Shown here: positions 47,089-64,000 of the stretch, in pieces
Position numbering within the stretch: the stretch's first letter is position 1
Layout: the number at the start of each line of letters is the position of its first letter
Assembly: GCA_946480465.1 (NCBI GenBank)
Contig: CAMLJY010000011.1
Coordinates: forward strand, 1 to 64,000
Source of the DNA: an uncultured Burkholderiales bacterium
GTDB taxonomy: Bacteria > Pseudomonadota > Gammaproteobacteria > Burkholderiales > Burkholderiaceae
Direction of reading: 5' to 3'
Length of the DNA stretch: 64,000 bases
Position numbers and translations under genes: made by a program
The notes under the pieces: generated by a model
Seen by the model: the letters and a program-made list of their open reading frames with translations, nothing else
Database searches by the model: none
Told to the model about the DNA's origin: nothing

Positions 47089-47811
47089 TCAGGCGGCGGC
47101 GAGGGCCGGGCGCTCTTCGCGCGCGACCTGGCCGTCGAGGAAATGGATGATGCGGTCCGCATACGCGGCCAAGTCGCGCTCGTGCGTCACCATCATCACG
47201 GTGATGCCGTGTTCGCGGTTCAGCGCCGTCAGCAGCTTCATGATGTCCTGGCTGCGGGCGCTGTCCAGGTTGCCGGTGGGCTCGTCAGCCAGCAGCACCG
47301 AGGGCTGGGTGACGATGGCCCGCGCGATGGCCACCCGCTGCTGCTGGCCGCCGGACAGCTCCGCCGGCGTGTGCGTTTCCCAGCCGGCCAGGCCGACGCG
47401 GGCCAGCGCATCGCGCGCGGCGGCGCCGCGCTGCTTGCGGCCCATGCCGCGGTAAAGGAGCGGCAGTTCCACGTTCTCCAGCGCGGTGGTGCGCGCCAGC
47501 AGGTGGAAGCCCTGGAACACGAAGCCCAGGTGCCTGCGCCGCAGCAGCGCGCGCTGGTCGCGCGTCAGCGTGCCCACTTCCACGCCGCGGAAGCGGTAGC
47601 TGCCGCTGGACGGGGTGTCCAGGCAGCCGATCAGGTTCATGGCGGTGCTCTTGCCGGAGCCGCTCGGGCCCATCACCGCGACGAACTCGCCCGCGTCCAC
47701 GCCCAAGTCCACGCCGCGCAGGGCCTGGAAGGCGGCCGAGCCCTGGCCGTAGGTCTTGGTCAGGCCCCTCAGGCGGATCAGCGGCGGTTCGCCTTCGCCG
47801 CGTTCAGCCAT
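47089..47811 (-). CDS. ABC transporter ATPase (MacB/LolD-like)
   Basis: A 240-residue ATPase: Walker A GPSGSGKST (48-56), Q-loop GFVFQGFHLL, signature LSGGQQQR, Walker B LLADEPTGNLD and H-loop VTHE. It powers the MacB-like permease. The ATG at 47811 lies inside the last codons of the adaptor gene (8-base overlap), a sign of translational coupling. The longer frame upstream is a shadow. Confidence 0.93.
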   Translation of the reverse strand: MAERGEGEPPLIRLRGLTKTYGQGSAAFQALRGVDLGVDAGEFVAVMGPSGSGKSTAMNLIGCLDTPSSGSYRFRGVEVGTLTRDQRALLRRRHLGFVFQGFHLLARTTALENVELPLLYRGMGRKQRGAAARDALARVGLAGWETHTPAELSGGQQQRVAIARAIVTQPSVLLADEPTGNLDSARSQDIMKLLTALNREHGITVMMVTHERDLAAYADRIIHFLDGQVAREERPALAAA

Positions 47812-49123: not shown

Positions 49124-50706
49124 GGGCGGGCTCCGGCGGGGGCGGTGGGGCCGGTGGAGGCGGTGGCGGTGGCGGTGGCGGTGGCGGTGGCGGTGGCGTT
49201 CGTGGGTGTGTTGGCGGGTGTCACCGCGGGCGCGCCCGCGGAGGTGTCGGCAGGGATGTCAGCTGATGCGGCAGCGGGTGCGGCATCGGCATCCCAGCCG
49301 CCTCCGAGGGCCTTGTAGAGCCGCACCTGGTTCAGCGCCAGGTCGGTGCGCGCGGTCGCCAGCGCGTCCTGGGCCGACAGCGCGCTGCGCTGCGCGTCCA
49401 GCAGCGGCGTGAAGTCGGTGAGGCCGGTCTGGTAGCGCAGCCGCGCCAGCGACAGCGCTTGCGACGCGGACGCGGCGGCGCGCGCCAGGCTGGCGACCTG
49501 CTCGCGGCCGGTGGCCAGAGCCGCCAGCGTGTCTTCCACATCCTGCTGCGCCGTCAGGACGCTGGCCCGGTAGGCGATGCGCGCGCCTTCCAGGGCCGCG
49601 CGCTGGGCCTGCAGCCGGGCGTGCGCGGCGCCGCCGTCCAGCACCGGCCACTGGATGCCGGCGGTGATGCCGGCCACCAGCGCACCGGGCTGGCCCAGCG
49701 CGGCCAGCGTCAGCGCCTGCAGGCCCAGGCGGCCGCTGATGCTGAAGGTGGGCAGGCGTTCGGCCTGGCGCTGTGCCAGCGTCGCCAGCTCGGCCGTGGC
49801 CCGGGCCTCGGCGGCAAGTACGTCGGGCCGGCGGCGAAGCAGGTCGGCGGGCAGGCCGGCCGCCGGCAGGGGTGGCAGGGCGGGCACGGCGGCGGCGGGG
49901 CTCAAGCGGTCGCCCAGCGCGGCGGGCGGCTGGCCCAGCAGCACCGCCAGGCGGTGCTCGGTCTGTGCCAGCGTGGACTGCAGCGCGGGGATGCGGGCCC
50001 GCGTCTGCTCGGCCGCGGCGCGGGCCTGTTCCACGTCCAGCGGCGTTGCCAGGCGCGCGCCGGCGCGCCATTCGGCCACCTGCTGCGATTCGGCCTGCAG
50101 CGCCAGATTCTGCTGCGCCACCTGCAGCTGCTGCCGCGTGCCGTGCCATTGGAGGTAGGCCAGGCCGACCTCGCCTGCCACCGCGATGCGCGTGGCGGCC
50201 AGCTGCAGGGCGCTGGCTTCGGCCTGCGCCTCGGCTGCGGCGATGCCGGCGCCGATGCGGCCGAAGACATCCGGCTCCCAGCTGGCATCCAGGCCGGCCG
50301 AGAGGCTGTTGCTGTTGTTGCCCGCATTGCGGTTGCGGCCGGCGGAGGCCGAGCTGCCCACCTGCACCGAGCGCCCGGCCGCGCTGACGCCGCGCAGCGC
50401 GCGTGCCTGCGCCAGCGTGGCTTGCGCACTCTTCAGGTCCAGGTTGGCACGCAGCGCCTCGTCCACCAGCGCGCCCAGCACCGGGTCGCCGATCCCTTGC
50501 CACCAGGTTGCAAGGCTGCGCCCGTCGCTGGTGCCGGCCGCGGGGGCCTGGCGGTAGGCGGACGCGACCGGCGGCTGCAGGGTGTGTGCGTCCTCGTGCT
50601 TCAGGGCGGGCGCGGCGCAGCCGCCGGCCACCGCGGCTGCGATCAACAGCAGGACGGCCGGCGCGCGCGGCGCGGCGCAGGGAAGGGGCCAAGGACGCTT
50701 GTTCAT
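49120..50706 (-). CDS. Outer-membrane efflux lipoprotein (NodT/TolC family)
   Basis: A 528-residue channel protein. The lipobox AGGC puts C29 as the lipidated residue. Two OEP repeats follow (about 65-260 and 270-460), with LATWWQGIGDPVLGALVDEAL and the LRRRPDVLAAEARATAELA signature of the NodT group. The C-terminal 60 residues are low complexity and include an (Ala-Thr)n run coded by a 6-bp tandem repeat, which may vary between strains. First gene of the efflux operon OMP-adaptor-ATPase-permease. ATG at 50706; the longer frame is upstream non-coding. Confidence 0.9.
   Translation of the reverse strand: MNKRPWPLPCAAPRAPAVLLLIAAAVAGGCAAPALKHEDAHTLQPPVASAYRQAPAAGTSDGRSLATWWQGIGDPVLGALVDEALRANLDLKSAQATLAQARALRGVSAAGRSVQVGSSASAGRNRNAGNNSNSLSAGLDASWEPDVFGRIGAGIAAAEAQAEASALQLAATRIAVAGEVGLAYLQWHGTRQQLQVAQQNLALQAESQQVAEWRAGARLATPLDVEQARAAAEQTRARIPALQSTLAQTEHRLAVLLGQPPAALGDRLSPAAAVPALPPLPAAGLPADLLRRRPDVLAAEARATAELATLAQRQAERLPTFSISGRLGLQALTLAALGQPGALVAGITAGIQWPVLDGGAAHARLQAQRAALEGARIAYRASVLTAQQDVEDTLAALATGREQVASLARAAASASQALSLARLRYQTGLTDFTPLLDAQRSALSAQDALATARTDLALNQVRLYKALGGGWDADAAPAAASADIPADTSAGAPAVTPANTPTNATATATATATATASTGPTAPAGARP
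49159..49198. repeat. 6-bp tandem repeat inside the efflux lipoprotein gene
   Basis: GGCGGT repeated 6.7 times on the plus strand, coding alternating Ala-Thr near the C-terminus of the outer-membrane efflux protein on the minus strand. A six-base unit keeps the frame if copies are gained or lost. Confidence 0.9.
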
Positions 50707-51054
50707 GACTTCGGGTTTGTACCGAGGGCGTGTCAAGTGTTCAGCGGCGCGCGGTAAAGAAACTTGGCTTGGCGCAATCGGCGTGCAGGTCGCACCAGCG
50801 CCGTGCACCACAACATGCCGAGGTGCGCCGCCGGCCCCGCGCCGGTGCATCCCCGAGCCGCCCTGGGACCTGCCGATGGCGCGCCTTCCTGGGAATGAGG
50901 GCACCTGGCGTGCCGCGGTCCGGCTGGCCCATCGCTTGCTTGTATACCGGCTTGAACACCGCCTCGGATTCACGGGTGGTTCGCAGCGCCGGGTCGGGCC
51001 GGCGGCGCTGCCGTGCTCGCCATCGCCGTCCCGTACTTGCAGGAGTTCGCACCC
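50707..51054. other. Divergent intergenic region (efflux operon / ureide transport cluster)
   Basis: No gene is seen in these 348 bases. They must carry promoters for the efflux operon (left) and the BMP transporter cluster (right). TTGTATACCG at 50940-50949 resembles half of a TTGTATACAA site of the kind bound by FCD-type GntR regulators, and such a regulator ends the cluster (62289). AGGAG at 51041-51045 is the ribosome site of the BMP gene. Confidence 0.45.
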
Positions 51055-52161
51055 ATGTCTTTCAGCGCCTGGAACCGCCGCGACTGGATCAAGACCGCCG
51101 GGGCCCTCGCGGCCGTGTCACACGGCTTCGGTGCACAGGCGCAGAAGCCGGTCACCGTGGGCTTCATCTACGTGGGGCCGCGCGACGACTACGGCTACAA
51201 CCAGGCGCATGCGGAGGCCGCGGCGCAGGTGAAGAAGCTGGCCGGCGTGAAGGTGGTCGAGGAAGAGAACGTGCCCGAGACCAACGCGGTGCAGAAGACG
51301 ATGCAGGGCATGGTGGCGCAGGACGGCGCGGCGCTGTTGTTCCCCACCTCCTTCGGCTACTTCGATCCGCACATCCTGGCGCTGGCGCCAAAGAACGGCG
51401 GCGTGCGCTTCGCCCACTGCGGCGGCCTCTGGAGCGAGGCCAGGCACCCCAAGAACGTGGGCAGCTTCTTCGGCTACATCGACGAGGCGCAGTACCTGAA
51501 CGGCGTCATCGCCGGCCACCAGAGCAAGAGCAAGAAGCTCGGCTTCATCGCCGCCAAGCCGATCCCGCAGGTGTTGCGCAACATCAACGCCTTCACGATG
51601 GGCGCGCGCTCGGTGGATCCGAAGATCACGACGACGGTGATCTTCACCGGCGACTGGTCGATGCCGGTCAAGGAAGCCGAGGCCACCAACAGCCTGGCCG
51701 ACCAGGGCGTCGACGTCTTCACGATGCACGTGGACGGGCCCAAGGTGATCGTGGAGACAGCCGCCAAACGCGGGAAGTACGTGGCCGGCTACCACGCCTC
51801 CCAGGCCAAGCTGGCGCCGCAGGCCTACCTGACCGGGGCGGAGTGGAACTGGATCACCGCGTACAAGCAGATCATCGAAGCGGCACAGAGCGGCAAGCCG
51901 CACCCGAACTTCGTGCGCGGCGGGCTGAAGGACGGCTTCGTGAAAAGCTCGGCGTATGGCCCGATGGTGAGCGAAGGCGCGCGCAAGAACGCCGATGCGG
52001 TGCGGGCCAGGATGATGGCCGGCACCTTCGACATCTTCGGGGGCGAGCTCAAGGACAACACCGGCAAGGTCGTGATCCCGAAGGGCACGGTGCTGAAGCA
52101 GACCGACATGGCGCTGGAGTCGATGAACTACCTGGTGGAAGGGGTGGTGGGCAAGGTTTGA
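51055..52161 (+). CDS. BMP-family ABC transporter substrate-binding protein
   Basis: A 368-residue binding protein of the BMP/PnrA type, which usually bind nucleosides, purines or related ring compounds. The N-terminus NRRDWIKTAGALAA looks like a Tat signal, cut after GAQAQ. Typical strands: VTVGFIYVGPRDDYGYNQAHAE, and later FGYIDEAQYLNGVIAG and VDVFTMHVDGPKV. It feeds the two permeases that follow; its ATPase is 5.6 kb downstream at 57820. Heading a block with biuret-hydrolase-like enzymes and AtzF, it likely captures a ureide, pyrimidine or triazine compound. ATG 51055 has AGGAG nine bases upstream. Confidence 0.88.
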   Translation: MSFSAWNRRDWIKTAGALAAVSHGFGAQAQKPVTVGFIYVGPRDDYGYNQAHAEAAAQVKKLAGVKVVEEENVPETNAVQKTMQGMVAQDGAALLFPTSFGYFDPHILALAPKNGGVRFAHCGGLWSEARHPKNVGSFFGYIDEAQYLNGVIAGHQSKSKKLGFIAAKPIPQVLRNINAFTMGARSVDPKITTTVIFTGDWSMPVKEAEATNSLADQGVDVFTMHVDGPKVIVETAAKRGKYVAGYHASQAKLAPQAYLTGAEWNWITAYKQIIEAAQSGKPHPNFVRGGLKDGFVKSSAYGPMVSEGARKNADAVRARMMAGTFDIFGGELKDNTGKVVIPKGTVLKQTDMALESMNYLVEGVVGKV

Positions 52162-52301
52162 CCGGTCTCGCTGCTGCGCGGCCCGATCCTGCGCCTGCGG
52201 TGCTCGCCGTACCGAAGTACGGCTGCGCTCCTCGCCGCAGCCTCGGGCCGCTCGCGACGCGATCCCGGCCAAACCTCCGGTTCACTTGACCTGGCTCTGG
52301 C
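52162..52301. repeat. Palindromic intergenic element
   Basis: A GC-rich stretch between transporter genes with a perfect GCCGTAC-CGAA-GTACGGC hairpin (52206-52223) inside larger imperfect pairing (TGCGG...CCGCA). I recall similar sequence being widespread between genes in Burkholderiales, so this may be a dispersed repeat; that needs a genome search. Confidence 0.5.
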
Positions 52302-53414
52302 ATGAATCGAACAACCGACTCCGGATGGCACGCCGCTGCGGAAGCCGTGCTGCTGCCCACCGGCGCCATCGCCGCCGCGCTGCTGCTGTTCGGCGCCTTC
52401 GTTTGGTTCGGCGGTGCCAGTCCGGCGGAAGCCTGGGTGCTGCTTTTCCGCGGCGCCTTCGGTGACGCATTCTCGTGGCAGAACACCTTGCAGCGCGCGG
52501 CGCCCTTGATGTTGACGGCGCTGGCGGTGGCGCTGCCGGCCCGCGCGGGTTTGACGGTGATCGGCGGTGAAGGCGCGCTGGTGCTCGGCGCCTTGGGCTG
52601 CGCCGCGTTGCCATATTTGGTGCCGCTGACGCCCGATGCGAGCGGCAGTGCGCTGGTGCTGCTGGCCGGCGCGCTCGCCGGTGCGGCCTGGGTGGCGCTG
52701 GCCGGCGTGCTGCGGCAGTGGCGCGGCGTCAACGAAACCATCTCCAGCCTGCTGCTGGGCTACATCGCCATCGCGCTGTTCAAGCACCTGGTGGAAGGGC
52801 CGCTGCGGGATCCGGCCAGCCTGAACAAGCCGTCGACGCAGCCGCTGGCCGAGGGCATGCGCATCGGCGCGATCTCGCCGGACAGCCTGCTCGGCGACGT
52901 GCACTGGGGTCTCGTGATCGGCCTGGTGTCGTGCCTCGCGGCCGGTGTGTGGCTCAGCTTGACGTCCTCGGGCTTCGCGCTGCGCGTGGCCGGTGGCAAT
53001 GCCGGCACCGCGCGCGGCGTGGGATTACCGGTGGACCGGCTCATCGTGCTGGCCTGCGGGCTGGGCGGCGCGTGCGCCGGGCTGGCCGGCGCCATCGAGG
53101 TGGCGGCGGTGCACACGGCGGCCAATGCCTCGGTCATCGCCGGCCTGGGCTACACCGGCATCCTGGTGTCCTTCGTCGCGCGGCACAACCCGTGGGCCAT
53201 TCCCATCGTCGCGGTGCTGTTCGGCGGCTTCGCCGCGGCCGGCAGCCTGCTGCAGCGGCGGCTGGGCCTGCCCGATGCCTCGGTGCTGGTGCTGCAGGGC
53301 TTTGCCTTCGTCTTCATCCTCGCGGCCGAAGCGCTCCGCGGCCGCCTCTTCGAGCTGCGCGTGCCGGCGTTCAGTCGTGTGCGGCTCGCCACCCACCTCG
53401 GAAAGGCCGTGTGA
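52302..53414 (+). CDS. ABC transporter permease (BMP/nucleoside-type importer, subunit 1)
   Basis: A 370-residue permease of the BPD_transp_2 (branched-chain/sugar/nucleoside) class with about ten hydrophobic helices. The conserved coupling region reads LRVAGGNAGTARGVGLPVDRLIVLA and the GLAGAIEVAAVHTAANASVIAGLGYTGILVSFVA stretch lies near residues 265-300 (shown in pieces). It pairs with the next permease and the double ATPase at 57820. Its stop shares one base with the start of the next gene (TGATG). Confidence 0.87.
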   Translation: MNRTTDSGWHAAAEAVLLPTGAIAAALLLFGAFVWFGGASPAEAWVLLFRGAFGDAFSWQNTLQRAAPLMLTALAVALPARAGLTVIGGEGALVLGALGCAALPYLVPLTPDASGSALVLLAGALAGAAWVALAGVLRQWRGVNETISSLLLGYIAIALFKHLVEGPLRDPASLNKPSTQPLAEGMRIGAISPDSLLGDVHWGLVIGLVSCLAAGVWLSLTSSGFALRVAGGNAGTARGVGLPVDRLIVLACGLGGACAGLAGAIEVAAVHTAANASVIAGLGYTGILVSFVARHNPWAIPIVAVLFGGFAAAGSLLQRRLGLPDASVLVLQGFAFVFILAAEALRGRLFELRVPAFSRVRLATHLGKAV

Positions 53415-54334
53415 TGGACGGCGGCCAGTTCTTCGACCTGCTGCTGGCCATGCTCGGCGGCGCGGTGCGCGTGGGCACGCCCTTCCTGTTCGTCAGCCTC
53501 GGTGAATGCCTGACTGAAAAATCCGGCCGCATCAACCTGGGCCTGGAGGGCGTGCTGGTGTTCTCGGCGATGGCCGGCTTCGGCGGCGCCTACCTCAGCG
53601 GCTCACCCTGGCTCGGCGTGCTGCTGGCGGGCGTGAGCGGGGCCGCGCTGGCGCTGCTGCACGGTCTCTTGTGCTCGCTGCCGCGCGTGTCCGACATCGC
53701 CACCGGCATCGCGCTGATGCTGCTGGGCGCGGGCCTGGCCTTCTACCTCGGCAAGCCGCTGATCCAGCCGCAGGCGCCGCAGATCCCCGCGCTGCCGCTG
53801 GGCGCGTGGAGCGATTCGCCGGCGGTGCAGAGCGCGCTGGCCATCAACGCGCTGTTCCCCATCGGCATCGGCCTGGCCGCGCTGCTGGCCTGGGGCTTCG
53901 CCAACACCCGCTGGGGCCTGGTGGTGCGCATGGCGGGTGACTCCGGCGACGCCGCTCGTGCGCTGGGTTATTCAGCCAGCGCGGTGCGCATTGCCGCCAC
54001 CGCGGCCGGCGGCTTCATCGCGGGCCTGGGCGGCGCCTCGCTGTCCTTGCACTACCCGGGCAGCTGGAACGAAGGCCTGTCCAGCGGCCAGGGGCTGATC
54101 GCGGTGGCGCTGGTGATCTTCGCGCGCTGGCAGCCCTGGCGCTGCCTGGGTGCGGCGCTGCTCTTCGGCGGCGCGGGCGCCATCGGGCCGGCGCTGCAGT
54201 CCATCGGCATCAGCGGTGGCTACTACCTCTTCAACGCCATGCCGTATGCGCTGACGCTGGCCATCCTCGTCCTCACCTGTTCGCCACGCCGCGCCCTGCA
54301 GGGCGCGCCGGGCGAGCTGGGTGTCTCACGCTGA
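53414..54334 (+). CDS. ABC transporter permease (BMP/nucleoside-type importer, subunit 2)
   Basis: A 306-residue permease of the same class: [21 protein letters not shown] near residues 34-54 is the hallmark of the second permease of BMP-type importers, and [21 protein letters not shown] is the coupling segment. About eight hydrophobic helices. Together with the upstream permease it forms the membrane channel. The biuret-hydrolase-like gene follows after 22 bases. Confidence 0.88.
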
Positions 54335-54356
54335 CTTTCTCTCGAAGGACCCGAGC

Positions 54357-55040
54357 ATGACGCTGATCGCCTCCGAACCCTATGCCTGGCCGTTTGATGG
54401 CGACCTGCGCGCGGCCAACACCGCGCTGGTCATCATCGACATGCAGACCGACTTCTGCGGCATCGGCGGCTACGTCGACAAGATGGGCTACGACCTGTCG
54501 CTGACCCGCGCGCCGATCGAGCCGATCAAGGCGGTGCTGGCGGTGGCGCGGGCCCAGGGCCTGCACGTGATCCACACGCGGGAGGGGCACCGGCCCGACC
54601 TGGCCGACCTGCCTGCCAACAAGCGCTGGCGCTCGCGGCGCATCGGCGCCGGCATTGGTGATGCCGGACCTTGCGGCCGCATCCTGGTGCGTGGCGAACC
54701 GGGCTGGGAAATCATTCCCGAGCTGGCGCCCATCGATGGCGAGCCGATCATCGACAAGCCCGGCAAGGGTTCGTTCTGCGCGACCGATCTGGAACTGATC
54801 CTGCACACCCGCGGCATCCGCAACCTGATCCTCACCGGCATCACCACGGACGTGTGCGTTCACACGACCATGCGCGAGGCCAACGACCGCGGCTTCGAAT
54901 GCGTGCTGCTCAGCGACTGCACGGGCGCCACCGACCGCGCCAACCACGAGGCCGCGCTGAAGATGATCCAGATGCAGGGCGGCGTGTTCGGCGCCGTGTC
55001 CGATTCGCGCGCCGTGATCGAGGCGCTGTCCGCGCTGTGA
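54357..55040 (+). CDS. biuH: Biuret-hydrolase-like cysteine hydrolase (BiuH type)
   Basis: A 227-residue isochorismatase-fold amidohydrolase. It has the triad D28 (IIDMQTDFC), K134 (IDKPGKG) and C167 (TTDVCVHTT); these align with D36, K142 and C175 of Rhizobium leguminosarum biuret hydrolase. Long identical-looking stretches, as I recall that protein, include [38 protein letters not shown] and [11 protein letters not shown]. BiuH removes ammonia from biuret to give allophanate, the substrate of AtzF encoded 5 kb downstream. ATG 54357 with GAAGGA is preferred to a GTG at 54321 overlapping the permease. Close relatives act on other ureides, so activity should be treated as probable. Confidence 0.82.
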
Positions 55041-55117
55041 CCGTTGTCCTGCCCCCGACCGTTCCCTCAAACGCTCCCAAACGTTCCCAAACGATCCCTA
55101 ACGCCAAGGATGTTGTG

Positions 55118-56113
55118 ATGTCTTTCGACGACCGCTTTGATTCGAAACGTCGCGCCGTGCTGAAGGCCGGCGCGGCTTCGGCCGCGCTGGTGGCCTTGAG
55201 CCGCAAGGCGCTGGCGCAGGACGACAAGATCCTGATCGGCTTCTGGCCCATCGCCTCCGGCCTGCCGCTGTACGTGGGCCTGGAGCGCGGCATCTTCAAG
55301 GAAGCCGGGCTGAACGTGGAAGGCGCCAAGTTCGCCAGCGCGCAGCAGGTGGCCGAGGCCATGATCGCCGGCCGCATCCATGGCTCGGCCAACGGCACCG
55401 CCTCGGCCGCGCTGGGGCTGGCGGAGATCACCAGCCCCAATCTCTTCAAGATCATCTGCAGCAACCCCAGCAACCGCACGCTGATCCTGGACGAGTTCGT
55501 CGTGCCCAAGGACTCGCCGGTCAGGGCCATCGCGGAGCTGGCGGGCAAGAAGATCGCCTCCGGCCCCGGCATCCAGAACGTGACGCTGGCCAAGATCATT
55601 CTTGAAAGGAACGGCATCGCCAACCCGCAGGTGGTCGAGTTGCCGATCGGCCAGCACGTGCCGGCGCTGGCCGCGGGCCAGATCGACGCTGCCTACACGC
55701 TGGAGCCCACCGGCACCGCGGGCCGGCTGAAGGGGCTGACGCGAGTGCTGGAGCCGGGCGTCATCTCCAAGTACGTGCTGGGCAACCACGACGCACCCTG
55801 GTTCGGCGGCTCGGCCAGCGTGACCACCGCGTTCCTGAAGGACAAGCCCGAGCTGGCGAAGCGCTATGTCGCGGCCTATGCGAAGGCGGTGGACTGGGTG
55901 CGCAAGAACCCCGAGGCCGCGCGCAAGCACATGGACGGCTTCACCGCGATCGAGGAATCGCTGGTGAAGGAGGTGCCGCTGGCCGGCTTCACGCTCTACA
56001 ACGAGTTCAAGCCCAGCGACGTCGAGTACTTCCAGAAGTTCTTCGACGTGTTCACCGAGCGCAAGATCTTCAACAAGCGCCTCGACGTGAAGTCGCTGCT
56101 CTACACCGGCTGA
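55118..56113 (+). CDS. ABC transporter substrate-binding protein (NMT1/SsuA type)
   Basis: A 331-residue binding protein: Tat-like signal KRRAVLKAGAASAALVAL cut after ALAQ, then the NMT1/THI5-like fold (GFWPIASGLPLYVGLERGIF; AGKKIASGPGIQNVTLAKI; AAGQIDAAYTLEPTG, in order). Members bind sulfonates, nitrate, taurine, pyrimidine precursors or ureides. Followed by its permease after two bases and by the ATPase, it forms a second importer in the same cluster. The ligand is likely related to the hydrolases nearby, not a sulfonate, but this is inference. Four 10-bp repeats lie just upstream. Confidence 0.87.
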   Translation: MSFDDRFDSKRRAVLKAGAASAALVALSRKALAQDDKILIGFWPIASGLPLYVGLERGIFKEAGLNVEGAKFASAQQVAEAMIAGRIHGSANGTASAALGLAEITSPNLFKIICSNPSNRTLILDEFVVPKDSPVRAIAELAGKKIASGPGIQNVTLAKIILERNGIANPQVVELPIGQHVPALAAGQIDAAYTLEPTGTAGRLKGLTRVLEPGVISKYVLGNHDAPWFGGSASVTTAFLKDKPELAKRYVAAYAKAVDWVRKNPEAARKHMDGFTAIEESLVKEVPLAGFTLYNEFKPSDVEYFQKFFDVFTERKIFNKRLDVKSLLYTG

Positions 56114-56115
56114 GC

Positions 56116-56883
56116 ATGATGGGCCGCTTCTTCGACAAGCGCTGGCTGCCGCTCATCGGCCCGCTGCTGCTGCTGGCCGTGTGGCAGCTGATGATCTCCG
56201 CGCAGTGGGTGAAGGCCGTGCTGCTGCCGCCACCGGCCGACACGCTGGCCCACATGGCCGGCGTGTTCGCCAGCGGCGCGATCTTCGGCGACCTGTGGGC
56301 CACCATCTTCCGCACGGTGTGCTCGTTCGGCATCGCGGTCGCCATCGGCGTGCCGCTGGGCGTGATGCTGGGCAGCAGCGAAGGCGCCTACCGCAGCGTC
56401 GAGTTCCTGATCGACTTCTTCCGCTCCACGCCCTCGTCGGCGCTGATCCCGCTGTTCCTGCTGATCTTCGGCATCACCGACGTCAACAAGATCGCCATCG
56501 CCAGCTTCGGCGCCGCGCTGATCGTGCTGTTCAACAGCGCCTACGGCGTGATGAACGCGAAGAAGACGCGGGTGATGGCGGCGCAGATCATGGGCGTGTC
56601 GAGGTGGCACGTGTTCAAGGACGTGATGCTGATGGAAAGCCTGGCGCAGACCTTCGTCGGCCTGCGCAGCGCGGTGTCGATGGCGCTGGTGATCGTGATC
56701 GTCGCCGAGATGTTCATCGGCAGCGAAAGCGGCCTGGGGCACCGCATCATCGACGCGCAGCAGGTCTTCAACGTGAAGGAGATGTACACGTCGATCCTGG
56801 TGACCGGTGCTTTGGGCTACCTGCTCAACCTGCTGTTCCTGCTCGCCGAGAAGCGGCTCGTTCATTGGAGTGGCAAGGCATGA
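56116..56883 (+). CDS. ABC transporter permease (SsuC/TauC type)
   Basis: A 255-residue BPD_transp_1 permease with six hydrophobic helices. The EAA loop reads AAQIMGVSRWHVFKDVMLMES, and GLRSAVSMALVIVIVAEMF follows. It starts two bases after the binding protein stop and overlaps the ATPase start by four bases (ATGA), so the three genes are one importer unit. Confidence 0.92.
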   Translation: MMGRFFDKRWLPLIGPLLLLAVWQLMISAQWVKAVLLPPPADTLAHMAGVFASGAIFGDLWATIFRTVCSFGIAVAIGVPLGVMLGSSEGAYRSVEFLIDFFRSTPSSALIPLFLLIFGITDVNKIAIASFGAALIVLFNSAYGVMNAKKTRVMAAQIMGVSRWHVFKDVMLMESLAQTFVGLRSAVSMALVIVIVAEMFIGSESGLGHRIIDAQQVFNVKEMYTSILVTGALGYLLNLLFLLAEKRLVHWSGKA

Positions 56884-57707
56884 ATGCGGCGCTTCCTTCC
56901 GCCGTGCTGCCGCCCTTGGCCGGCGACACGGTCGTCTCGCTGCCCGCGGCGCCCAAGACCCACGTCACCGTGCGTGGCTTGAGCAAGAGCTTCGCCGGCG
57001 TGCCGCTCTACACCAACTTCAACCTCGATCTGCCGCGCGGCAAGATCGTCTCGATCTTCGGCCCCAACGGCTGCGGCAAGTCGACGCTGATGAACATGAT
57101 CGCGGGGCTGGTGAAGCCCGATGCCGGCGAGATCCTGTTCGACGGCAAGACGCTCAAGGAAACGCAGATCGGCTACGTGTTCCAGAACTACCGCGACGCG
57201 CTGTTTCCCTGGATCACGGCCTGGGACAACATCGCCTACCCGCTGAAGCGCCAGGGCTTGAAGCCCGCGGAGGTGAAGGCCCGCGTCGACGAGCTGGTGC
57301 AGCTGTTCGAGATCCGCTTCGACCTGAAGCGCTACCCCTACGAGCTGTCCGGCGGGCAGATGCAGACGGTGTGCATCATGCGGTCCCTCGCCACGCGGCC
57401 GGAGGTGCTGTTCCTCGACGAGCCCTTCTCCGCGCTGGACTTCGAGATGACGCTTTTCATCCGCGCCAAGCTGCAGGAAGCGCACCTGGCCACCGGCACG
57501 ACGATGGTCATCGTCTCGCACGACCTGGAAGACGCGGTGTTCCTCGCCGACCGCATCCTGCTGCTGACGCGCCGGCCCACGCGCATTGCCGAGCTGGTGT
57601 CCTTCGACATGCCGCGGCCGCGCCTGCCCGAAGCGGTGGCCGATCCCGAGTTCGTGCGCGTGAAGGCGCACACGCTGGAAGTGTTCCGGCGCGAGATGGC
57701 GGCCTGA
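56880..57707 (+). CDS. ABC transporter ATPase (SsuB/TauB type)
   Basis: A 275-residue ATPase: Walker A GPNGCGKST, Q-loop YVFQNYRDALFPW, signature LSGGQMQ (Arg replaced after the second Gln: MQTV), Walker B VLFLDEPFSALD and H-loop SHDLEDA. A 30-residue N-terminal extension precedes the domain. It drives the NMT1-type importer. The signature deviation is mild and seen in related importers. Start overlaps the permease stop (ATGA). Confidence 0.92.
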   Translation: MNAALPSAVLPPLAGDTVVSLPAAPKTHVTVRGLSKSFAGVPLYTNFNLDLPRGKIVSIFGPNGCGKSTLMNMIAGLVKPDAGEILFDGKTLKETQIGYVFQNYRDALFPWITAWDNIAYPLKRQGLKPAEVKARVDELVQLFEIRFDLKRYPYELSGGQMQTVCIMRSLATRPEVLFLDEPFSALDFEMTLFIRAKLQEAHLATGTTMVIVSHDLEDAVFLADRILLLTRRPTRIAELVSFDMPRPRLPEAVADPEFVRVKAHTLEVFRREMAA

Positions 57708-57819
57708 TGACCCACCCCCGAATTGGCCTGCGGCCCCTTCCCCCTCGAGGGCAAGCCCAGCGGCCCGGCAGAACCGGCTCCGCGGCGTTTGCTTGGGAAC
57801 TCCCGCAGGTGACGAAGTG
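57708..57819. repeat. Intergenic palindrome-rich element
   Basis: This gap begins with the stop codon context TGACCCACCCCCGAATTGG and carries GGCCTGCGGCC, CCCCCTCGAGGG and GCGGCCCGG...CCGGCTCCGC pairings. Very similar stretches are, from memory, frequent between genes in Comamonadaceae and relatives, so it is probably a dispersed repeat. It splits the two transporter ATPase genes. Confidence 0.5.
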
Positions 57820-59382
57820 ATGAACGCATTGACCCTCGAGACCTTCAACCTGACGAAACGCTTCGGCGCCTTCACGGCGCTCGACGGCGTGTCGCTCACC
57901 GTGCGGCCTGGCACGGTGCATGCGCTGCTGGGCGAGAACGGCGCCGGCAAGAGCACGTTGGTCAAGTGCATCGTGGGTTATCACCCGCCCGACGACGGTG
58001 CGGTGATGGTGGACACGCGCGAGCGCGACGTCCGCTCGCCCACCGTCGCGCGCGACCTGGGCATCGGCATGGTCTACCAGCACTTCACCGTCGTGCCCGG
58101 CATGACGGTGGCCGAGAACCTGCTGCTCGCCCGTGGCCGCCTGCCCGCCGTGATCGATTGGCGCCAGGCGCGCGCCGAGCTGCAGCACTTCATGGACGGC
58201 ACGCCCTTCAAGCTGGACCTGGACGCAACACCGATGCAGCTGTCGGCCGGCGAGAAGCAGAAGCTGGAGATCCTGAAGCAGCTGTTCCTGAAGCCGCGCT
58301 TGTTGATCCTGGATGAACCCACTTCGGTGCTGACGCCCCAGGAGGCCGACGAGGTGCTGGGTGCTTTGCGCGATAGGGCGCATGCGGGCGACTGCTCGGT
58401 GATCCTGATCACCCACAAGTTCCGCGAGGTGGCGGAGCATGCGGACGACGTCAGCGTGCTGCGGCGCGGCCGGCTGGTGGCCAGCGGCCCGGTGGCTCGG
58501 CATCCGCCGGCGCAGCTGGCGCAGGCCATGGTGGGCGAGGGCAAGGCGGCGGCGCCGCTGGTGCGCGCGCAGCGCGAGGCCGGGCCCATCGTGCTGTCGA
58601 TCGAAGGGCTGGCAGTGCGCGGCGACCGCGGCGAAGCAGCGGTGCGGGGCATGGACCTGCGTGTCTGCGCCGGCGAGATCGTCGGCATCGCCGGGGTGTC
58701 CGGCAACGGCCAGCGCGAGCTGATGCAGGCGCTGGTGGGGCAGCGCCGCCGCGAAGCGGGTGAGGTTCGCGTGGTGGGGCGGGCCTTCACGGCCACCCGC
58801 CGGCAGAACCGCGCGCTGAAGGTGCGCAGCCTGCCGGAAGAGCCGCTGGCCAATGCCTGCGTCGGTGCCCTGAGCGTGGCGCAGAACATGGCCCTGCGTG
58901 AATTCGACGAGCCACCCTTTGCCCGCGCCGGCTGGGTGCGCTGGTCGCGCCTGCGCCGCCGCGCGCGCGAGTGGATCGCGGAGTACGGCGTGAAGACGCA
59001 AGGCGAGCGAGCGCCGATGAAGACGCTGTCCGGCGGCAACGTGCAGCGCGCGGTGCTGGCGCGCGAGTTGTCGGGCGATGCCGCGCTGCTGTTGGTCAGC
59101 AACCCGGTGTTCGGGCTGGACTTCGCGGCCGTGGCCGAGATCCACGGCCGCCTGATGGCCGCGCGCAACCGCGGTGCCGCGGTGCTGCTGGTCAGCGAGG
59201 ACCTGGACGAGCTGCTGGCGCTGGCCGACCGCATCGTCGTGATGAGCGAAGGCCGCATCGTGCATGACGTGGCCACCGGCGCGGCCGACCGGCACGAGCT
59301 GGGCGCGTTCATGGGCGGCAAGGCGCATGCGGCCGCCGCGCCGGGGGCGAGGGCCGCGGCGATCGCGCAGGGGGCCGCATGA
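57820..59382 (+). CDS. Double-domain ABC ATPase of the BMP-type importer
   Basis: A 520-residue protein with two nucleotide-binding domains, as in importers of ribose, nucleosides and BMP ligands. Domain 1: Walker [10 protein letters not shown], signature LSAGEKQK, Walker [13 protein letters not shown]. Domain 2 is degenerate as usual: GVSGNGQRE in place of Walker A, but LSGGNVQR and [12 protein letters not shown] remain. It serves the permeases at 52302-54334 although the NMT1 importer and biuH lie between, so the cluster was probably rearranged. ATG 57820 follows an AGGTGA-like ribosome site. Stop overlaps the next start (ATGA). Confidence 0.9.
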
Positions 59383-60071
59383 GCTGCATCGACGGCGCCC
59401 GGCCGTTTCCGTTCTGCTTCGACCTTGCCCACACGGCGCTCGTCATCATCGACATGCAGCGCGACTTCATCGAACCGGGCGGCTTCGGCGCCTCGCTGGG
59501 CAACGACGTGACGCGGCTGCAGGCCATCGTGCCGACGGTGCAGGCGGTGCTGTCGGCCTGGCGGCGCGCCGGCGGCTTCATCGTGCACACCCGCGAAGGC
59601 CATGCGCCCGACCTGTCCGATTGCCCGCCGGCGAAGCGCCAACGCGGCGCGCCCACGCTGCGCATCGGCGACGAAGGGCCCATGGGCCGGGTGCTGGTGA
59701 TTGGCGAGCCGGGCCACGCCATCATCCGCGAGCTGACGCCGTACGACCGTGAGCTGGTGATCGACAAGCCCGGCAAGGGGGCGTTCCATGCCACCGGCTT
59801 GCAGCAGGCGCTGCACGAACGCGGCATCACGCACCTGGTGCTGATGGGCGTCACGACCGAGGTCTGCGTGCAGACGACGATGCGCGAGGCCAACGACCGT
59901 GGCTACGAGGTGCTGCTGGTCGAGGACGGCACCGAGAGCTATTTCCCCGAGTTCAAGGCCGCCACGCTGGCGATGCTGACCGCGCAGGGCGGCATCGTCG
60001 GCTGGACGGCGCCGGCTGCGGCGCTGCTGGCGGCCCTGGCCACCGCAACCGACCTGGCAATCACGAGATGA
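59379..60071 (+). CDS. Second cysteine hydrolase (isochorismatase-like, BiuH/RutB relative)
   Basis: A 230-residue amidohydrolase with triad D25 (IIDMQRDF), K130 (IDKPGKG) and C163 (TTEVCVQTT). It shares the [12 protein letters not shown] segment and the AQGG near the C-terminus with the BiuH-like protein upstream but is clearly diverged (no W in the NKRW position; RQRGAPTL instead). It likely opens or deamidates a different ureide, perhaps one step before biuret or allophanate. Translation is coupled on both sides by ATGA overlaps with the ATPase and atzF genes. Substrate unknown. Confidence 0.82.
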
Positions 60072-61864
60072 CCGACCACCCGCTCACTTTGGCCGATTGG
60101 CGCGCAGCCTATGCACAGTCCGGCGCCTCCCCGCGGGCGCTGCTGGCGCCGCTGCTGGCGCGCCGCGCGGCCGAGGACCCGGCCTGGATCCACCGCTGCG
60201 GCGACGACTTCATGCAGGCGCAGCTCGCACGGCTGGACGCCGCGTCCCCGGACCAGCTGCCGCTCTACGGCGTGCCCTTCGCGGTGAAGGACAACATCGA
60301 CGTCGCCGGCCTGCCCACCACCGCCGCCTGCCCGGCCTTCGCCTACGTGCCGGAGCAGCACGCCACCGTGGTGCAGCGGCTGCTGGACGCCGGCGCGGTG
60401 CTCGTCGGCAAGACCAACCTCGACCAGTTCGCCACCGGGCTGGTGGGTACGCGCTCGCCGTACGGCGAGGTGCCGAACAGCTTCGATCCGGCCTACGTCA
60501 GCGGCGGGTCCAGCTCGGGGTCGGCCTCGGTCGTCGCACGCGGGCTGGCCGCCTTCGCGCTGGGCACCGACACGGCAGGCTCCGGCCGCGTGCCCGCGGG
60601 CTTCAACAACCTGGTGGGCCTGAAGCCGACGCCGGGTTCCGTGCCCATGGCCGGCGTGCTGCCCGCCTGCCGCACGCTGGACGTGGTCTCGGTCTTCGCG
60701 CTGACGGTGGCCGATGCCGCGCAGGTGATGGCGGTGATCGAAGGCGCCGAGGGCGAGCCGCGCTTCCAGCAGGCGGCGCCACGTCCGGCCTGGTTCGGCG
60801 ACGGCCGCCGCTTGCGCGTGGGCGTGCCGTCCCGTCCGGGGTGCGATCCGGCGCTGGGTTATGCCGCCGCCTACGAGGATGCGCTGGGCCAGCTGCGCGC
60901 CACCGGGCTGGAGCCGGTGCCGGTCGACATGGAGCCCTTCGACGAGGTGGCCCGCCTGCTGTACGACGGCCCCTGGGTGGCCGAGCGCCAGGCGGTGGTG
61001 CAGGCCTTGGTGGCCCGCCAGCCCGAGGCCATGGACCCGGTGGTGCGCGAGGTGATCGGCGCGGCTGCGCGCCACGATGCGGCGGCCGCGTTCATCGGAC
61101 GTTATCGGCTGGAGGCGCTGCGCCGGCGGCTGGCGCCGGTGTGGGACGGCATCGACGTGCTGCTGGTGCCCACCGCGCCCACCTGTCCGACGCGCGCCGC
61201 GGTGGCGGCCGATCCCATCCGCCGCAATGCCGAGCTGGGCCGCTTCACCAACTTCGTCAACCTGCTGGGCCTGGCCGCGCTGGCGCTGCCCAGCGGCTTC
61301 ACCGCGGCCGGGCTGCCCTTCGGCATCACGCTGATCGGGCCGGGCGGCAGCGATGCGGCGCTGGTGGAGCTGGGCGCGCGATGGGAAGCGGCGCGCGCGC
61401 TGCCGCTGGGCGCCCGCCTGCGTGCCGCCAACGCGGCCGACCGCGCGCTGCAGCGCCGCCCGGCTTCTCAACCGACGCTGGCGCTGGCCGTCGTCGGTGC
61501 GCACCTGGAGGGCATGCCGCTGCATGGCCAGCTGCGCGAGCGGGGCTGCCGCCTCGTCGAACGCACCCGCACCGCGCCGGCCTACCGGCTTTACGCGCTG
61601 CCGGCCACCCAGCCGCCCAAGCCGGGGCTGGCGCGGGTGGGGGAGGGCGAGGGCGGCCACGCGATCGAGGTCGAGGTCTACGAGATGCCGATCGACCAGG
61701 TCGGCTCCTTCCTGGCGCTGATCCCGCCGCCGCTGGGCCTGGGCTCGGTGCAGCTGGCCGACCAGCGCTGGGTGCATGGCTTCGTCTGCGAGCCGGCGGC
61801 GCTGGCCGGCGCCACCGACATCAGCGCCTGGGGCGGCTGGCGCGCCTGGCGGGCGACGCAATGA
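60068..61864 (+). CDS. atzF: Allophanate hydrolase
   Basis: A 598-residue amidase-signature enzyme. The catalytic set K74 (FAVKDN), S148 (SGGSSSGSA) and S172 ([11 protein letters not shown]) has the same spacing as in Pseudomonas AtzF. After residue 450 comes the second domain with [13 protein letters not shown] and a PPKPGLARV segment, which carries out the decarboxylation step. It converts allophanate to two NH3 and two CO2. It is the free-standing form, without a urea carboxylase. It is coupled by ATGA overlaps to the hydrolase before and the AtzH-like gene after. It shows that the cluster ends in allophanate. Confidence 0.93.
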
Positions 61865-62256
61865 GCCAGGACGACGTCGACCAGCCGGGTGTCGTGGAGG
61901 AGATCACCGCACTTTTTCAACGTTATGAAGCGGCGCTCATGGCCAATGACCTGGCCACCCTGGACGCCTTCTTCTGGCCTGACGAACGGCTGACGCGCTA
62001 CGGCATCGCCGACCGGCAGTGGGGCATCGGCGAACTGCGCGCCTTCCGGGCCGCGGCGCCGGCGCCCGGCTTCACGCGCCGGCTCGAACACCTGCGCGTG
62101 TCCGCCTTCGGCCCGGACTGCGCCGTCGCACAGGTCGAGTTCGTGCGCAGCGACAGCCCGTTGCGCGGCTTCCAGTCCCAGACCTGGGTGCGCTTCGACG
62201 GCCTGGGCTGGCGCGTCGTCTCGGCGCACGTCAGCATGATCCCGTTCACGGCTTGA
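61861..62256 (+). CDS. AtzH/HpxZ-like (DUF3225) protein
   Basis: A 131-residue SnoaL-like cone protein: ITALFQRYEAALMANDLATLDAFFW, ERLTRYGIADRQWGIGELRAFR and a C-terminal QTWVRFDGLGWRVVSAHVSMI. In Pseudomonas sp. ADP the related AtzH removes a side product of cyanuric acid breakdown (1,3-dicarboxyurea, to my knowledge), and HpxZ sits in oxalurate operons. It probably protects or completes the path to allophanate. No AtzE amidase or AtzG is present here. ATGA overlap with atzF. Confidence 0.85.
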   Translation: MSQDDVDQPGVVEEITALFQRYEAALMANDLATLDAFFWPDERLTRYGIADRQWGIGELRAFRAAAPAPGFTRRLEHLRVSAFGPDCAVAQVEFVRSDSPLRGFQSQTWVRFDGLGWRVVSAHVSMIPFTA

Positions 62257-62288
62257 GGCCGTACGCGCTGCGTATCATCGAACCGACC

Positions 62289-62993
62289 ATGTCCTCCGTT
62301 CCTGCCAGGCCCTTGCTGGCCCCTGCCGATGAAGCCCCGACGCTGGCCGACCAGGCCTACGCCGAACTGAAGCAGATGATCTTCGACTTCGCGCTGATGC
62401 CCGGCGACCGCTGCAGCGAAAGCGAGCTGGCCCAGCGCCTCAAGGTCAGCCGCACGCCACTGCGCCAGGCCCTGCAGCGGCTGGAGCGCGAAGGCTTCCT
62501 GCAGGTGCTGCCGAAGATCGGCTGGCAGGTGGCGCCGCTGGACTTCGATACCTTCGACGAGCTGTACGACCTGCGCGTGCTGATTGAATGCCATGCCGCG
62601 CACGTTCTGGCCGAAGCCGAGGAACGGGGCCCGCTGAAGGCCCTGGCCGAGGTGTGGCTGGCCCCGCCCGAAGAACGCCTGGCCGACGGTGCCGAAGTGG
62701 GCCGGCTGGACGAGCAATTCCATGCCCTGCTGGTGCAAGGCAGCGGCAACCGCGAGATGGCGCGCGTGCACCGCCAGATCACCGAGCGCATCCGCATCAT
62801 CCGCCGCCTGGACTTCACGAAGCCGGCCCGGATCGAGGCAACCTACGACGAGCATGCCCGCATCCTGCGCGCCATCACCCGCCGCCGCGGCGACGAGGCG
62901 CAGCGCCTGCTGCGCGCGCACATCGAGCAGAGCAAGCTCGAGGTGCGGCACATCACGCTGGACATGCTTTACCAGGCGCGGCGCCGGGCCTGA
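62289..62993 (+). CDS. GntR family regulator (FCD/FadR subfamily)
   Basis: A 234-residue regulator: winged HTH at about 18-82 (QAYAELKQMIFDFALMPGD, ELAQRLKVSRTPLRQALQRLEREGFL in pieces) and a helical FCD ligand domain from about 95 (DELYDLRVLIECHAA; DEQFHALLVQGSGN; DEHARILRAITRRRGDEA) with Asp/His residues that commonly bind a metal. It likely controls the ureide cluster, possibly through the TTGTATAC-like site before the first gene. A TATCAT element lies 10 bases upstream of the ATG, so it may have its own promoter. Confidence 0.9.
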   Translation: MSSVPARPLLAPADEAPTLADQAYAELKQMIFDFALMPGDRCSESELAQRLKVSRTPLRQALQRLEREGFLQVLPKIGWQVAPLDFDTFDELYDLRVLIECHAAHVLAEAEERGPLKALAEVWLAPPEERLADGAEVGRLDEQFHALLVQGSGNREMARVHRQITERIRIIRRLDFTKPARIEATYDEHARILRAITRRRGDEAQRLLRAHIEQSKLEVRHITLDMLYQARRRA

Positions 62994-63091
62994 AGGCCTT
63001 TCACATCACGTTACCTGCGGTATCCGCTGGTCGCGAAGTTGCCCGGTGATGACACCAAAAGTGCGCGGCCGCGACGGTATAAACCCGGCCC

Positions 63092-63463
63092 ATGAATGGA
63101 GCGATGCAGGCCCCGCGCGGGCCGGGAGGAATGGTGCGCCTGCCCGGGCGCCTTGCCGCGTGTGCAGCGGCCTGTGGACTGGTGGCGTCATTGGCCTTGG
63201 CCGCCATGCCCGCGCACGCCATCGAGGTGGCGCCGGTCAGCGAGCGCGAGGCGCGCCAGCTGGCCAACGTGCTGCCGGATGCCACGCCGCTGGCCGCCGC
63301 GACAGCCGCGAGCCAGCCGCTGGTGTTGCAGCTGAAGCCGCAGCCCGCGGCCTCGCCGGCGGACGACCGCGCGCTGCAGCTGGTGGACGGTCATCCCGGG
63401 GCCTTGGTCCTGGCCGCACTCGCGCTGGCGCTGTGGGGCATGCGCCGCTCCTGGCGCCGCTGA
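63092..63463 (+). CDS. Small exported protein with C-terminal membrane anchor
   Basis: A 123-residue protein of unknown function. A signal peptide (about 16-43, ending PAHA), a short Ala-rich body and a C-terminal helix followed by RRSWRR (PGALVLAALALALWGM, residues about 102-117) resemble a sorting tail, as in PEP-CTERM or LPXTG-like systems, but the PEP box is missing (GHPG). TATAAA 13 bases before the ATG could be a -10. In-frame ATGs at 63092, 63104 and 63131 are possible. Confidence 0.55.
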   Translation: MNGAMQAPRGPGGMVRLPGRLAACAAACGLVASLALAAMPAHAIEVAPVSEREARQLANVLPDATPLAAATAASQPLVLQLKPQPAASPADDRALQLVDGHPGALVLAALALALWGMRRSWRR

Positions 63464-63602: not shown

Positions 63603-64000
63603 CTACTGGAACGCCACCTCGGCAAAGCTGCGCAGCTTGCGGCTGTGCAGCTGGTCCAGCCGCTGGCGCCGCAGCAGTTCGATCGCGCGCATGCCGATGC
63701 GCAGGTGCTGGTCCACCCGCTCGCGGTAGAACTGGTTGGCCATGCCGGGCAGCTTGATCTCGCCGTGCAGCGGCTTGTCGCTGACGCACAGCAGCGTGCC
63801 GTAGGGCACGCGGAAGCGGAAGCCGTTGGCGGCGATGGTGGCGCTTTCCATGTCCAGCGCCACCGCGCGGCTCTGGCTGAAGCGGCGCTCGGGGCCCGGG
63901 TGCGGCAGCAGCTCCCAGTTGCGGTTGTCGGTGGAGGCCACGGTGCCGGTGCGCAGGATGCGCTTCAGCTCGAAGCCCTTCAGCTGCGTCACGTCGGCCA
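63603..64000 (-). CDS. amn: AMP nucleosidase, C-terminal part (5' end outside window)
   Basis: The frame stays open to the window edge, so the gene enters from the right and only the last 132 residues are seen. These hold TGTVASTDNRNWELL, the phosphorylase-like active region SRAVALDMESATIAANGFRF and LCVSDKPLHGEIKLPGMANQFYR, matching the C-terminal domain of AMP nucleosidase, which splits AMP to adenine and ribose-5-phosphate. The stop lies next to a tandem-repeat tract. Confidence 0.88.
   Translation of the reverse strand, partial: ADVTQLKGFELKRILRTGTVASTDNRNWELLPHPGPERRFSQSRAVALDMESATIAANGFRFRVPYGTLLCVSDKPLHGEIKLPGMANQFYRERVDQHLRIGMRAIELLRRQRLDQLHSRKLRSFAEVAFQ

What the first reader, a model, noticed from the sequence alone, without database searches (positions are those of the whole stretch)
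51055..62993. Ureide-scavenging cluster: two ABC importers, two BiuH-like hydrolases, AtzF, AtzH-like, GntR
All genes are on one strand and many are coupled by ATGA overlaps. The enzymes converge on allophanate, but no cyanuric acid hydrolase (AtzD), AtzE or urea carboxylase is present. So the imported compound is not settled: biuret fits the first hydrolase, while the second hydrolase and a nucleoside-type importer point to another ureide, pyrimidine or guanidine-like source. The set may be an undescribed nitrogen-scavenging pathway.
Basis: partly seen in the sequence, partly recalled or inferred. Interest (0 to 1): 0.75.

Follow-up and report, generated by a model that had tools for sequence, protein, structure and literature searches.

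The report
Triuret and biuret nitrogen-scavenging gene cluster
This is a set of twelve neighbouring bacterial genes that most likely imports triuret and biuret (by-products of urea fertiliser and of uric acid breakdown) and turns them into ammonia; the pathway is already described, but one of its small enzymes looks like a distinct and untested version.

Summary
In detail: twelve same-strand genes, 51055-62993. The open point, what the second hydrolase acts on, has a published answer. It matches triuret hydrolase TrtA (best solved relative 6XIX) and carries 6 of 6 residues that separate TrtA from BiuH; the first hydrolase carries the BiuH letters and passes the BiuH model. Expected route: triuret, carboxybiuret, biuret, allophanate, ammonia and CO2. 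A cluster of trtA, biuH, trtB, atzF, bmpA-nupABC and gntR is in print (2025), so "undescribed pathway" is not supported.

Seen here: (1) of 151 distinct TrtA loci, 116 hold the core and 10 the window's full order; (2) a sigma-54 promoter motif upstream, in 29 of 39 comparable loci against 2.2% of random pieces; (3) the "nucleoside-type" binding protein keeps AtzT's ring-stacking residues but swaps three ligand contacts, as do 113 of 114 relatives; (4) AtzH-like proteins split: 70 of 70 beside AtzE keep pocket Arg66, 40 of 40 without AtzE (window included) lack it. The window's AtzH probably acts on carboxybiuret, but this is inferred; the split may be one event, and TrtB's sequence could not be checked.

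The parts
50792..50806 (+). NtrC-like inverted site GCAC-N7-GTGC (candidate enhancer site)
   Evidence: such a site within 420 bp upstream in 17 of 40 upstream regions (window included) against 2.5% of 4530 random 420-bp pieces; the motif is recalled, not from a call
50925..50939 (+). sigma-54 (-24/-12) promoter motif TGGCCCATCGCTTGC, 130 bp before the first start codon
   Evidence: TGGC-N7-TTGC in 29 of 39 loci with no queried gene within 500 bp upstream of the BMP gene, plus the window; 2.2% of random pieces (drawn from whole loci, mostly coding). Over all loci with a BMP gene, 35 of 110. The motif count in the window by itself is not above chance (3 found, 4.09 expected); motif recalled
51055..52161 (+). 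BMP/PnrA-type ABC substrate-binding protein, relative of AtzT with changed ligand contacts
   Evidence: PF02608; best solved relative AtzT 6PI5, E 4.7e-59; Q172, H225, D227 in place of AtzT E165, N218, N220
52302..53414 (+). ABC permease 1 of the BMP-type importer
   Evidence: PF02653, 89.3 bits
53414..54334 (+). ABC permease 2 of the BMP-type importer
   Evidence: PF02653, 96.9 bits
54357..55040 (+). biuret hydrolase BiuH
   Evidence: NCBIfam BiurAmidohydBiuH 428.8 bits, cut-off 370; best solved relative 6AZO, named as BiuH in PMC7948467; BiuH-type letters at 6 of 6 discriminating positions
55118..56113 (+). NMT1/SsuA-type ABC substrate-binding protein of a second importer, ligand unknown
   Evidence: PF13379 and PF09084; only weak solved relatives, best E 1.7e-8
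56116..56883 (+). ABC permease of the second importer
   Evidence: PF00528
56880..57707 (+). ABC ATPase of the second importer
   Evidence: PF00005
57820..59382 (+). double ABC ATPase of the BMP-type importer
   Evidence: two PF00005 stretches
59379..60071 (+). triuret hydrolase TrtA
   Evidence: best solved relative 6XIX (TrtA), 307.6 bits against 218.1 for the best BiuH-type chain; TrtA-type letters at 6 of 6 discriminating positions; below the BiuH model cut-off, 245.3 against 370
60068..61864 (+). allophanate hydrolase AtzF with C-terminal domain
   Evidence: TIGR02713 768.3 bits, cut-off 511.05; PF01425 + PF21986
61861..62256 (+). AtzH-like (NTF2-fold) protein of the AtzE-less type; proposed carboxybiuret decarboxylase
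   Evidence: PF11533 148.5 bits; keeps Tyr22 and Arg46, has Ala at Arg66
62289..62993 (+). GntR/FCD regulator, probably of this cluster
   Evidence: PF00392 + PF07729; GntR relative in 122 of 151 loci

Best explanation
A nitrogen-controlled (sigma-54) operon for triuret and biuret. The BMP-type importer brings in triuret and perhaps biuret (inferred). TrtA removes one ammonia from triuret, giving carboxybiuret (identity from sequence; the reaction is known for the Herbaspirillum enzyme). Carboxybiuret loses CO2 to give biuret, on its own (half-life about 20 min in print) or sped up by the AtzH-like protein (inferred). BiuH makes allophanate plus ammonia, and AtzF splits allophanate to ammonia and CO2 (both from family membership). 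GntR probably senses an intermediate (inferred). What the second, NMT1-type importer carries is open.
For: TrtA: best solved relative 6XIX at 307.6 bits and F35, N41, A134, E160, Y187, I205 all of TrtA type; the first hydrolase has the BiuH letters Y, Y, S, D, T, V there (positions from PMC7948467, parts 1-4 read). BiuH and AtzF pass curated cut-offs. Same core in 116 of 151 distinct TrtA loci, including an R. leguminosarum pRL10 cluster. Sigma-54 motif in 29 of 39 comparable loci plus the window, 2.2% of random pieces. AtzD not found in 6 of 6 genomes that hold the window's full gene order while 3 of 3 positives rang, so cyanurate is not needed as the feed there. A cluster with trtA, biuH, trtB, atzF, bmpA-nupABC and gntR is described in nitrifiers (PMC12625717, passages).
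Against: No activity is measured for any of these proteins. No whole genome is held for the window, so AtzD or AtzE elsewhere cannot be excluded. The 80 loci and those were picked by likeness to the window's TrtA, so the uniform TrtA letters among them are partly by selection. The NMT1-type importer has no explanation, and a formamidase in 62 of 151 loci is not needed by this route.
Confidence: 0.88

Rival explanations
1. The AtzH-like protein does not act on carboxybiuret: BiuH or TrtA converts carboxybiuret to 1,3-dicarboxyurea, and the AtzH-like protein turns that into allophanate, as AtzH is thought to do in Pseudomonas sp. ADP.
For: Tyr22, Arg46 and in all 8 of 9 ADP pocket residues are kept. 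In ADP AtzH the Arg66 variants are not among the five reported as impaired (PMC6219798), so loss of Arg66 need not change the substrate.
Against: AtzE, the only enzyme I know to make 1,3-dicarboxyurea (PMC6219798), has no match over cut-off in 18 of 18 searched genomes with the Arg66-less type (0 of 6; 0 of 12) and has one in 4 of 4 genomes with the Arg66 type. Genome completeness is not told.
Confidence: 0.25
2. The cluster serves another ureide (pyrimidine ring-opening product, guanylurea or similar).
For: AtzT, the best solved relative of the BMP protein, binds guanine (PMC6834077, passages). A formamidase is found in 62 of 151 TrtA loci, which the triuret route does not need.
Against: TrtA and BiuH letters at all six discriminating positions; RutB model far below cut-off for both hydrolases, 121.0 and 92.7 against 377.95; AtzT guanine contacts E165, N218, N220 changed. 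No guanylurea hydrolase sequence was compared.
Confidence: 0.05
3. The AtzH-like gene belongs to oxalurate catabolism (HpxZ), as public annotation names it.
For: NCBIfam HpxZ scores 140.3 with cut-off 135; relatives are named so.
Against: It barely passes, and it lies between atzF and gntR in a triuret cluster with no AtzE-like amidase beside it. Oxalurate genes were not searched for.
Confidence: 0.04

Closest known systems
Triuret pathway of Herbaspirillum sp. BH-1 (TrtA, TrtB, BiuH, AtzF; PMC7948467)
   Same: TrtA, BiuH and AtzF, with matching discriminating residues
   Different: A second importer is present; whether BH-1 has one was not seen.
Triuret cluster of floodplain ammonia-oxidising bacteria (PMC12625717)
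   Same: trtA, biuH, atzF, trtB, bmpA-nupABC, gntR named together
   Different: No NMT1-type importer is named in the passages read; the figure and supplement are not held
R. leguminosarum pRL10 cluster (L089)
   Same: GntR, BMP importer, biuH, ATPase, trtA in the same core order
   Different: Has formamidase, AtzD and a 117-aa cupin after trtA; no AtzF or AtzH relative at the thresholds used in the 24.6 kb seen
Pseudomonas sp. ADP atzDGEHF and atzRSTUVW operons (PMC6219798, PMC6834077)
   Same: AtzF, AtzH family, BMP-type binding protein family, sigma-54 promoters
   Different: ADP uses AtzD and AtzEG; the window has neither and uses two isochorismatase-like hydrolases

Membership tests
TrtA (triuret hydrolase) | closer to solved TrtA than to BiuH | tested here: met
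   6XIX 307.6 bits, best BiuH-type chain 218.1
TrtA (triuret hydrolase) | catalytic Asp24, Lys129, Cys162 and substrate Gln202 | tested here: met
   all four present; also present in BiuH, so not discriminating
TrtA (triuret hydrolase) | F35, N41, A134, E160, Y187, I205 against BiuH Y, Y, S, D, T, V | tested here: met
   6 of 6 in 59379-60071; in the 80 loci 80 of 80 at five positions, A134 in 66 of 80
TrtA (triuret hydrolase) | hydrolyses triuret, hardly biuret | not testable with these tools
   needs an assay
BiuH (biuret hydrolase) | NCBIfam equivalog score over cut-off and BiuH letters (54357-55040) | tested here: met
   428.8 against 370; 6 of 6 letters
BiuH (biuret hydrolase) | the second hydrolase (59379-60071) passes the same model | tested here: not met
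   245.3 against 370: it is not filed as a BiuH
AtzF (allophanate hydrolase) | equivalog score and amidase + C-terminal domain | tested here: met
   768.3 against 511.05; PF01425 and PF21986
AtzH (1,3-dicarboxyurea enzyme of strain ADP) | Tyr22 and Arg46 | tested here: met
   letters of ADP AtzH as printed
AtzH (1,3-dicarboxyurea enzyme of strain ADP) | complete nine-residue pocket | tested here: not met
   8 of 9; Arg66 is Ala
AtzH (1,3-dicarboxyurea enzyme of strain ADP) | AtzE partner that makes the substrate | tested here: not met
   none in the window; 0 of 6 genomes with the window's gene order over cut-off
TrtB (carboxybiuret decarboxylase) | sequence relatedness to Herbaspirillum TrtB | not testable with these tools
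   the describing paper (recalled as AEM 2020) is not held, held papers give no family in what I read, and the BH-1 record is not in the collections
Cyanuric acid pathway | AtzD | tested here: not met
   no hit in the window; 0 of 6 genomes with the window's gene order, 3 of 3 positives ring
AtzT-type guanine binding protein | Glu165, Asn218, Asn220 contacts | tested here: not met
   Q172, H225, D227 in the window; Q, H and D in 113 of 114 relatives each
RutB (ureidoacrylate hydrolase) | TIGR03614 over cut-off | tested here: not met
   121.0 and 92.7 against 377.95
HpxZ (oxalurate catabolism) | NF033625 over cut-off | tested here: met
   140.3 against 135; context argues against the name

The most novel reading that the evidence does not exclude
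AtzH-like proteins that live without AtzE form a separate functional type, marked by loss of pocket Arg66 and by Leu53 to Gln/His, that acts directly on carboxybiuret, the product of TrtA. The triuret operons would then use at least three different solutions for this step: this AtzH type, AtzE plus classical AtzH, and perhaps the cupin that follows trtA in rhizobia. The solved but unassigned structure 2OWP (Bxe_B1374, P. xenovorans) would be a structure of this type.
Probability: 0.4. Interest if true: 0.5.

Novelty: new member of a known kind. Interest (0 to 1): 0.36.

Why it matters
It gives a residue rule that predicts which AtzH-like proteins work without AtzE, a binding-site signature for a likely triuret importer, and a conserved sigma-54 motif that would place the operon under nitrogen control. 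Each is directly testable.

Tried and rejected
AtzD/cyanurate as the feed: no AtzD in the window or in 6 of 6 genomes with the window's gene order (the built-in controls were silent in both, so one search added three known positives, which rang). AtzD does occur in 8 of 151 TrtA loci, so cyanurate may feed the pathway in those.

Independent gains of the AtzE-less AtzH type: on the best tree the AtzE-less rows need two changes, three when six trait columns are left out. A Variovorax group of seven (98/92) is nested among AtzE-linked rows, but the forks around it are weakly supported. With those six columns left out and L080 dropped, one clade is not rejected (AU p 0.513), and independent pairs are too few (1 on starred branches, 3 on all). 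So 70/70 against 40/40 may be one ancient split, and Fisher's p is not a measure of independent evidence.

Cupin and AtzH as alternatives: never together (6 and 112 of 151 loci, p 2e-4), but all six cupin loci (L068, L073, L076, L089, L091, L092) are alphaproteobacterial by their titles, so ancestry explains it as well. In 399 genomes of the order of G002 the cupin gave 9 weak matches (E 8.8e-19 to 9.2e-16) in open frames of 174-265 aa; not followed.

Sigma-70 promoters in 50900-63200: none found, 0.4 expected. Held papers with both triuret and formamidase, or both biuret hydrolase and cupin: none.

Structure prediction and fold searches were not run; both hydrolases, AtzH and the BMP protein have solved relatives by sequence.
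Full report
What is there. Twelve genes lie on the + strand from 51055 to 62993, several with overlapping stop and start codons. Family scans name them as BMP-type binding protein, two PF02653 permeases, BiuH, NMT1-type binding protein, permease, ATPase, double ATPase, a second isochorismatase-like hydrolase, allophanate hydrolase, AtzH-like protein and a GntR/FCD regulator. One AtzD, one AtzE, one formamidase and one rhizobial cupin used as tblastn queries find nothing in the window at E 1e-4 except AtzE hitting the allophanate hydrolase at 40%.

The second hydrolase is TrtA. Its best solved relative is 6XIX, called 'Cysteine hydrolase' in the PDB listing, 307.6 bits, against 218.1 for the best BiuH-type chain. 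PMC7948467 (parts 1-4 of 6 read) identifies 6XIX as Herbaspirillum TrtA and names six positions that differ between TrtA and BiuH. The window's second hydrolase has F, N, A, E, Y, I there and the first has Y, Y, S, D, T, V. The first passes the BiuH equivalog model (428.8 against 370) and the second does not (245.3). The same paper reports TrtA making carboxybiuret from triuret, with spontaneous loss of CO2 to biuret at a half-life of about 20 minutes.

How common it is. In 299 genomes of the family of G002, 87 match the TrtA query at E <= 1e-50; in 8 of these the best match is only 1e-55 to 1e-63, the level of BiuH. Pooling 80 + 4 plasmid + 75 fetched loci (159) gave 151 with distinct TrtA. 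Of these, 116 hold BMP, both permeases, BiuH and the double ATPase; 112 hold AtzH, 76 AtzE, 62 formamidase, 61 AtzF, 59 the second importer's permease and ATPase, 8 AtzD, 6 the cupin; 16 have the second importer between biuH and the double ATPase as in the window, and 10 have the window's full order. Many loci are cut by contig or fetch ends, so these are lower bounds.

Regulation. TGGC-N7-TTGC, the core of sigma-54 promoters (motif recalled), lies at 50925-50939. The count in the window alone is no evidence (3 found, 4.09 expected). Among loci with a BMP gene, 35 of 110 have it within 320 bp upstream against 3.0% of 2200 random pieces. Among loci with no queried gene within 500 bp upstream of the BMP gene, 29 of 39 have it within 420 bp, against 2.2% of 4530 random pieces; with the window it is 30 of 40. 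The random pieces come from whole loci, mostly coding. An NtrC-like GCAC-N7-GTGC is in 17 of 40 (2.5% background), in the window at 50792-50806. [quoted passage not shown]

The importer. The BMP protein's best solved relative is AtzT (6PI5), whose pocket is given in PMC6834077 (passages): Tyr45 and Trp194 sandwich a planar ring; Ser97, Phe98, Glu165, Asn218 and Asn220 contact it. The window keeps Y, S, F and W and has Q, H and D for Glu165, Asn218 and Asn220. In 114 relatives long enough to align (of 118 loci with the gene), Q, H and D stand in 113 of 114 each. A flat ligand other than guanine fits; triuret is the obvious candidate, not shown.

The AtzH-like protein. PMC6219798 (parts 1-3 of 5 read) gives nine pocket residues for ADP AtzH. 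The window has eight; Arg66 is Ala. Over 112 AtzH-like proteins (111 loci and the window), two have under 120 bases upstream and cannot be judged (L056 and L152, both with Arg66). Of the other 110, all 70 with AtzE within 2.5 kb have Arg66, and all 40 without have T, V, L, S, C, A or G; position 53 is Leu in 70 of 70 and Gln or His in 40 of 40. The AtzE-less loci that were counted hold at least 2.7 kb upstream of AtzH. Genome-wide, AtzE has no match over cut-off in 6 of 6 and 12 of 12 genomes of the second kind and one in 4 of 4 of the first. Against a simple reading: Arg66 variants of ADP AtzH were not reported as impaired, and the tree does not rule out a single origin of the AtzE-less type (AU p 0.513). 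I take the second kind to act on carboxybiuret; this is inference. Whether it is the published TrtB could not be decided: the describing paper is not held, what I read of the held papers gives no family for TrtB, and the BH-1 record is not in the collections.

Urea. Allophanate can decay to urea (PMC6219798); of 13 genomes with related clusters, 12 have a urease alpha subunit over cut-off and one only a partial match, so such urea would not be lost there.

What is known. A cluster of trtA, biuH, trtB, atzF, bmpA-nupABC and gntR in ammonia-oxidising bacteria is in PMC12625717 (passages). R. leguminosarum pRL10 has the same core with AtzD, formamidase and a cupin. The window is therefore a new member of a known kind. 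Searches of the held library for AtzH with triuret or allophanate, carboxybiuret and triuret hydrolase showed no title or abstract start that mentions the Arg66 split; none of the listed papers was read whole.

Noticed in passing
L089:7671-8687, L092:6710-7726 and others: A formamidase (NF009803, 586 against 406 for the L092 protein) lies between permease 2 and biuH; formamidase in 62 of 151 loci, not in the window. The triuret route does not need it.
   Followed up: partly
L089:12668-13021, L091:10644-10991, L092:10647-11000: A 115-117 aa ChrR-type cupin follows trtA in rhizobia and Sulfitobacter and is called 'allophanate hydrolase' in some records; a second candidate for the carboxybiuret step.
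   Followed up: partly
window 61861-62256 and relatives: Public records call relatives of this protein 'oxalurate catabolism protein HpxZ', probably a wrong name here.
   Followed up: partly
PDB 2OWP (Bxe_B1374): A solved protein of unknown function groups with the AtzE-less AtzH type of Cupriavidus, Paraburkholderia and Caballeronia triuret loci (100/97), with Cys66 and Ser96. Its own gene neighbourhood was not looked at.
   Followed up: partly
L044, L052, L055, L089, L127, L131, L137, L186: Eight of 151 TrtA loci also carry an AtzD relative, so cyanurate and triuret routes meet there.
   Followed up: no
window 47089-50973, - strand: Reading frames that look like a MacB-type ATPase, a MacA-type adaptor and a TolC-type outer membrane protein (by eye and recall, no search).
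   Followed up: no
window 63603-63992, - strand: A frame that resembles the end of AMP nucleosidase, cut by the window's edge (recalled likeness, no search).
   Followed up: no
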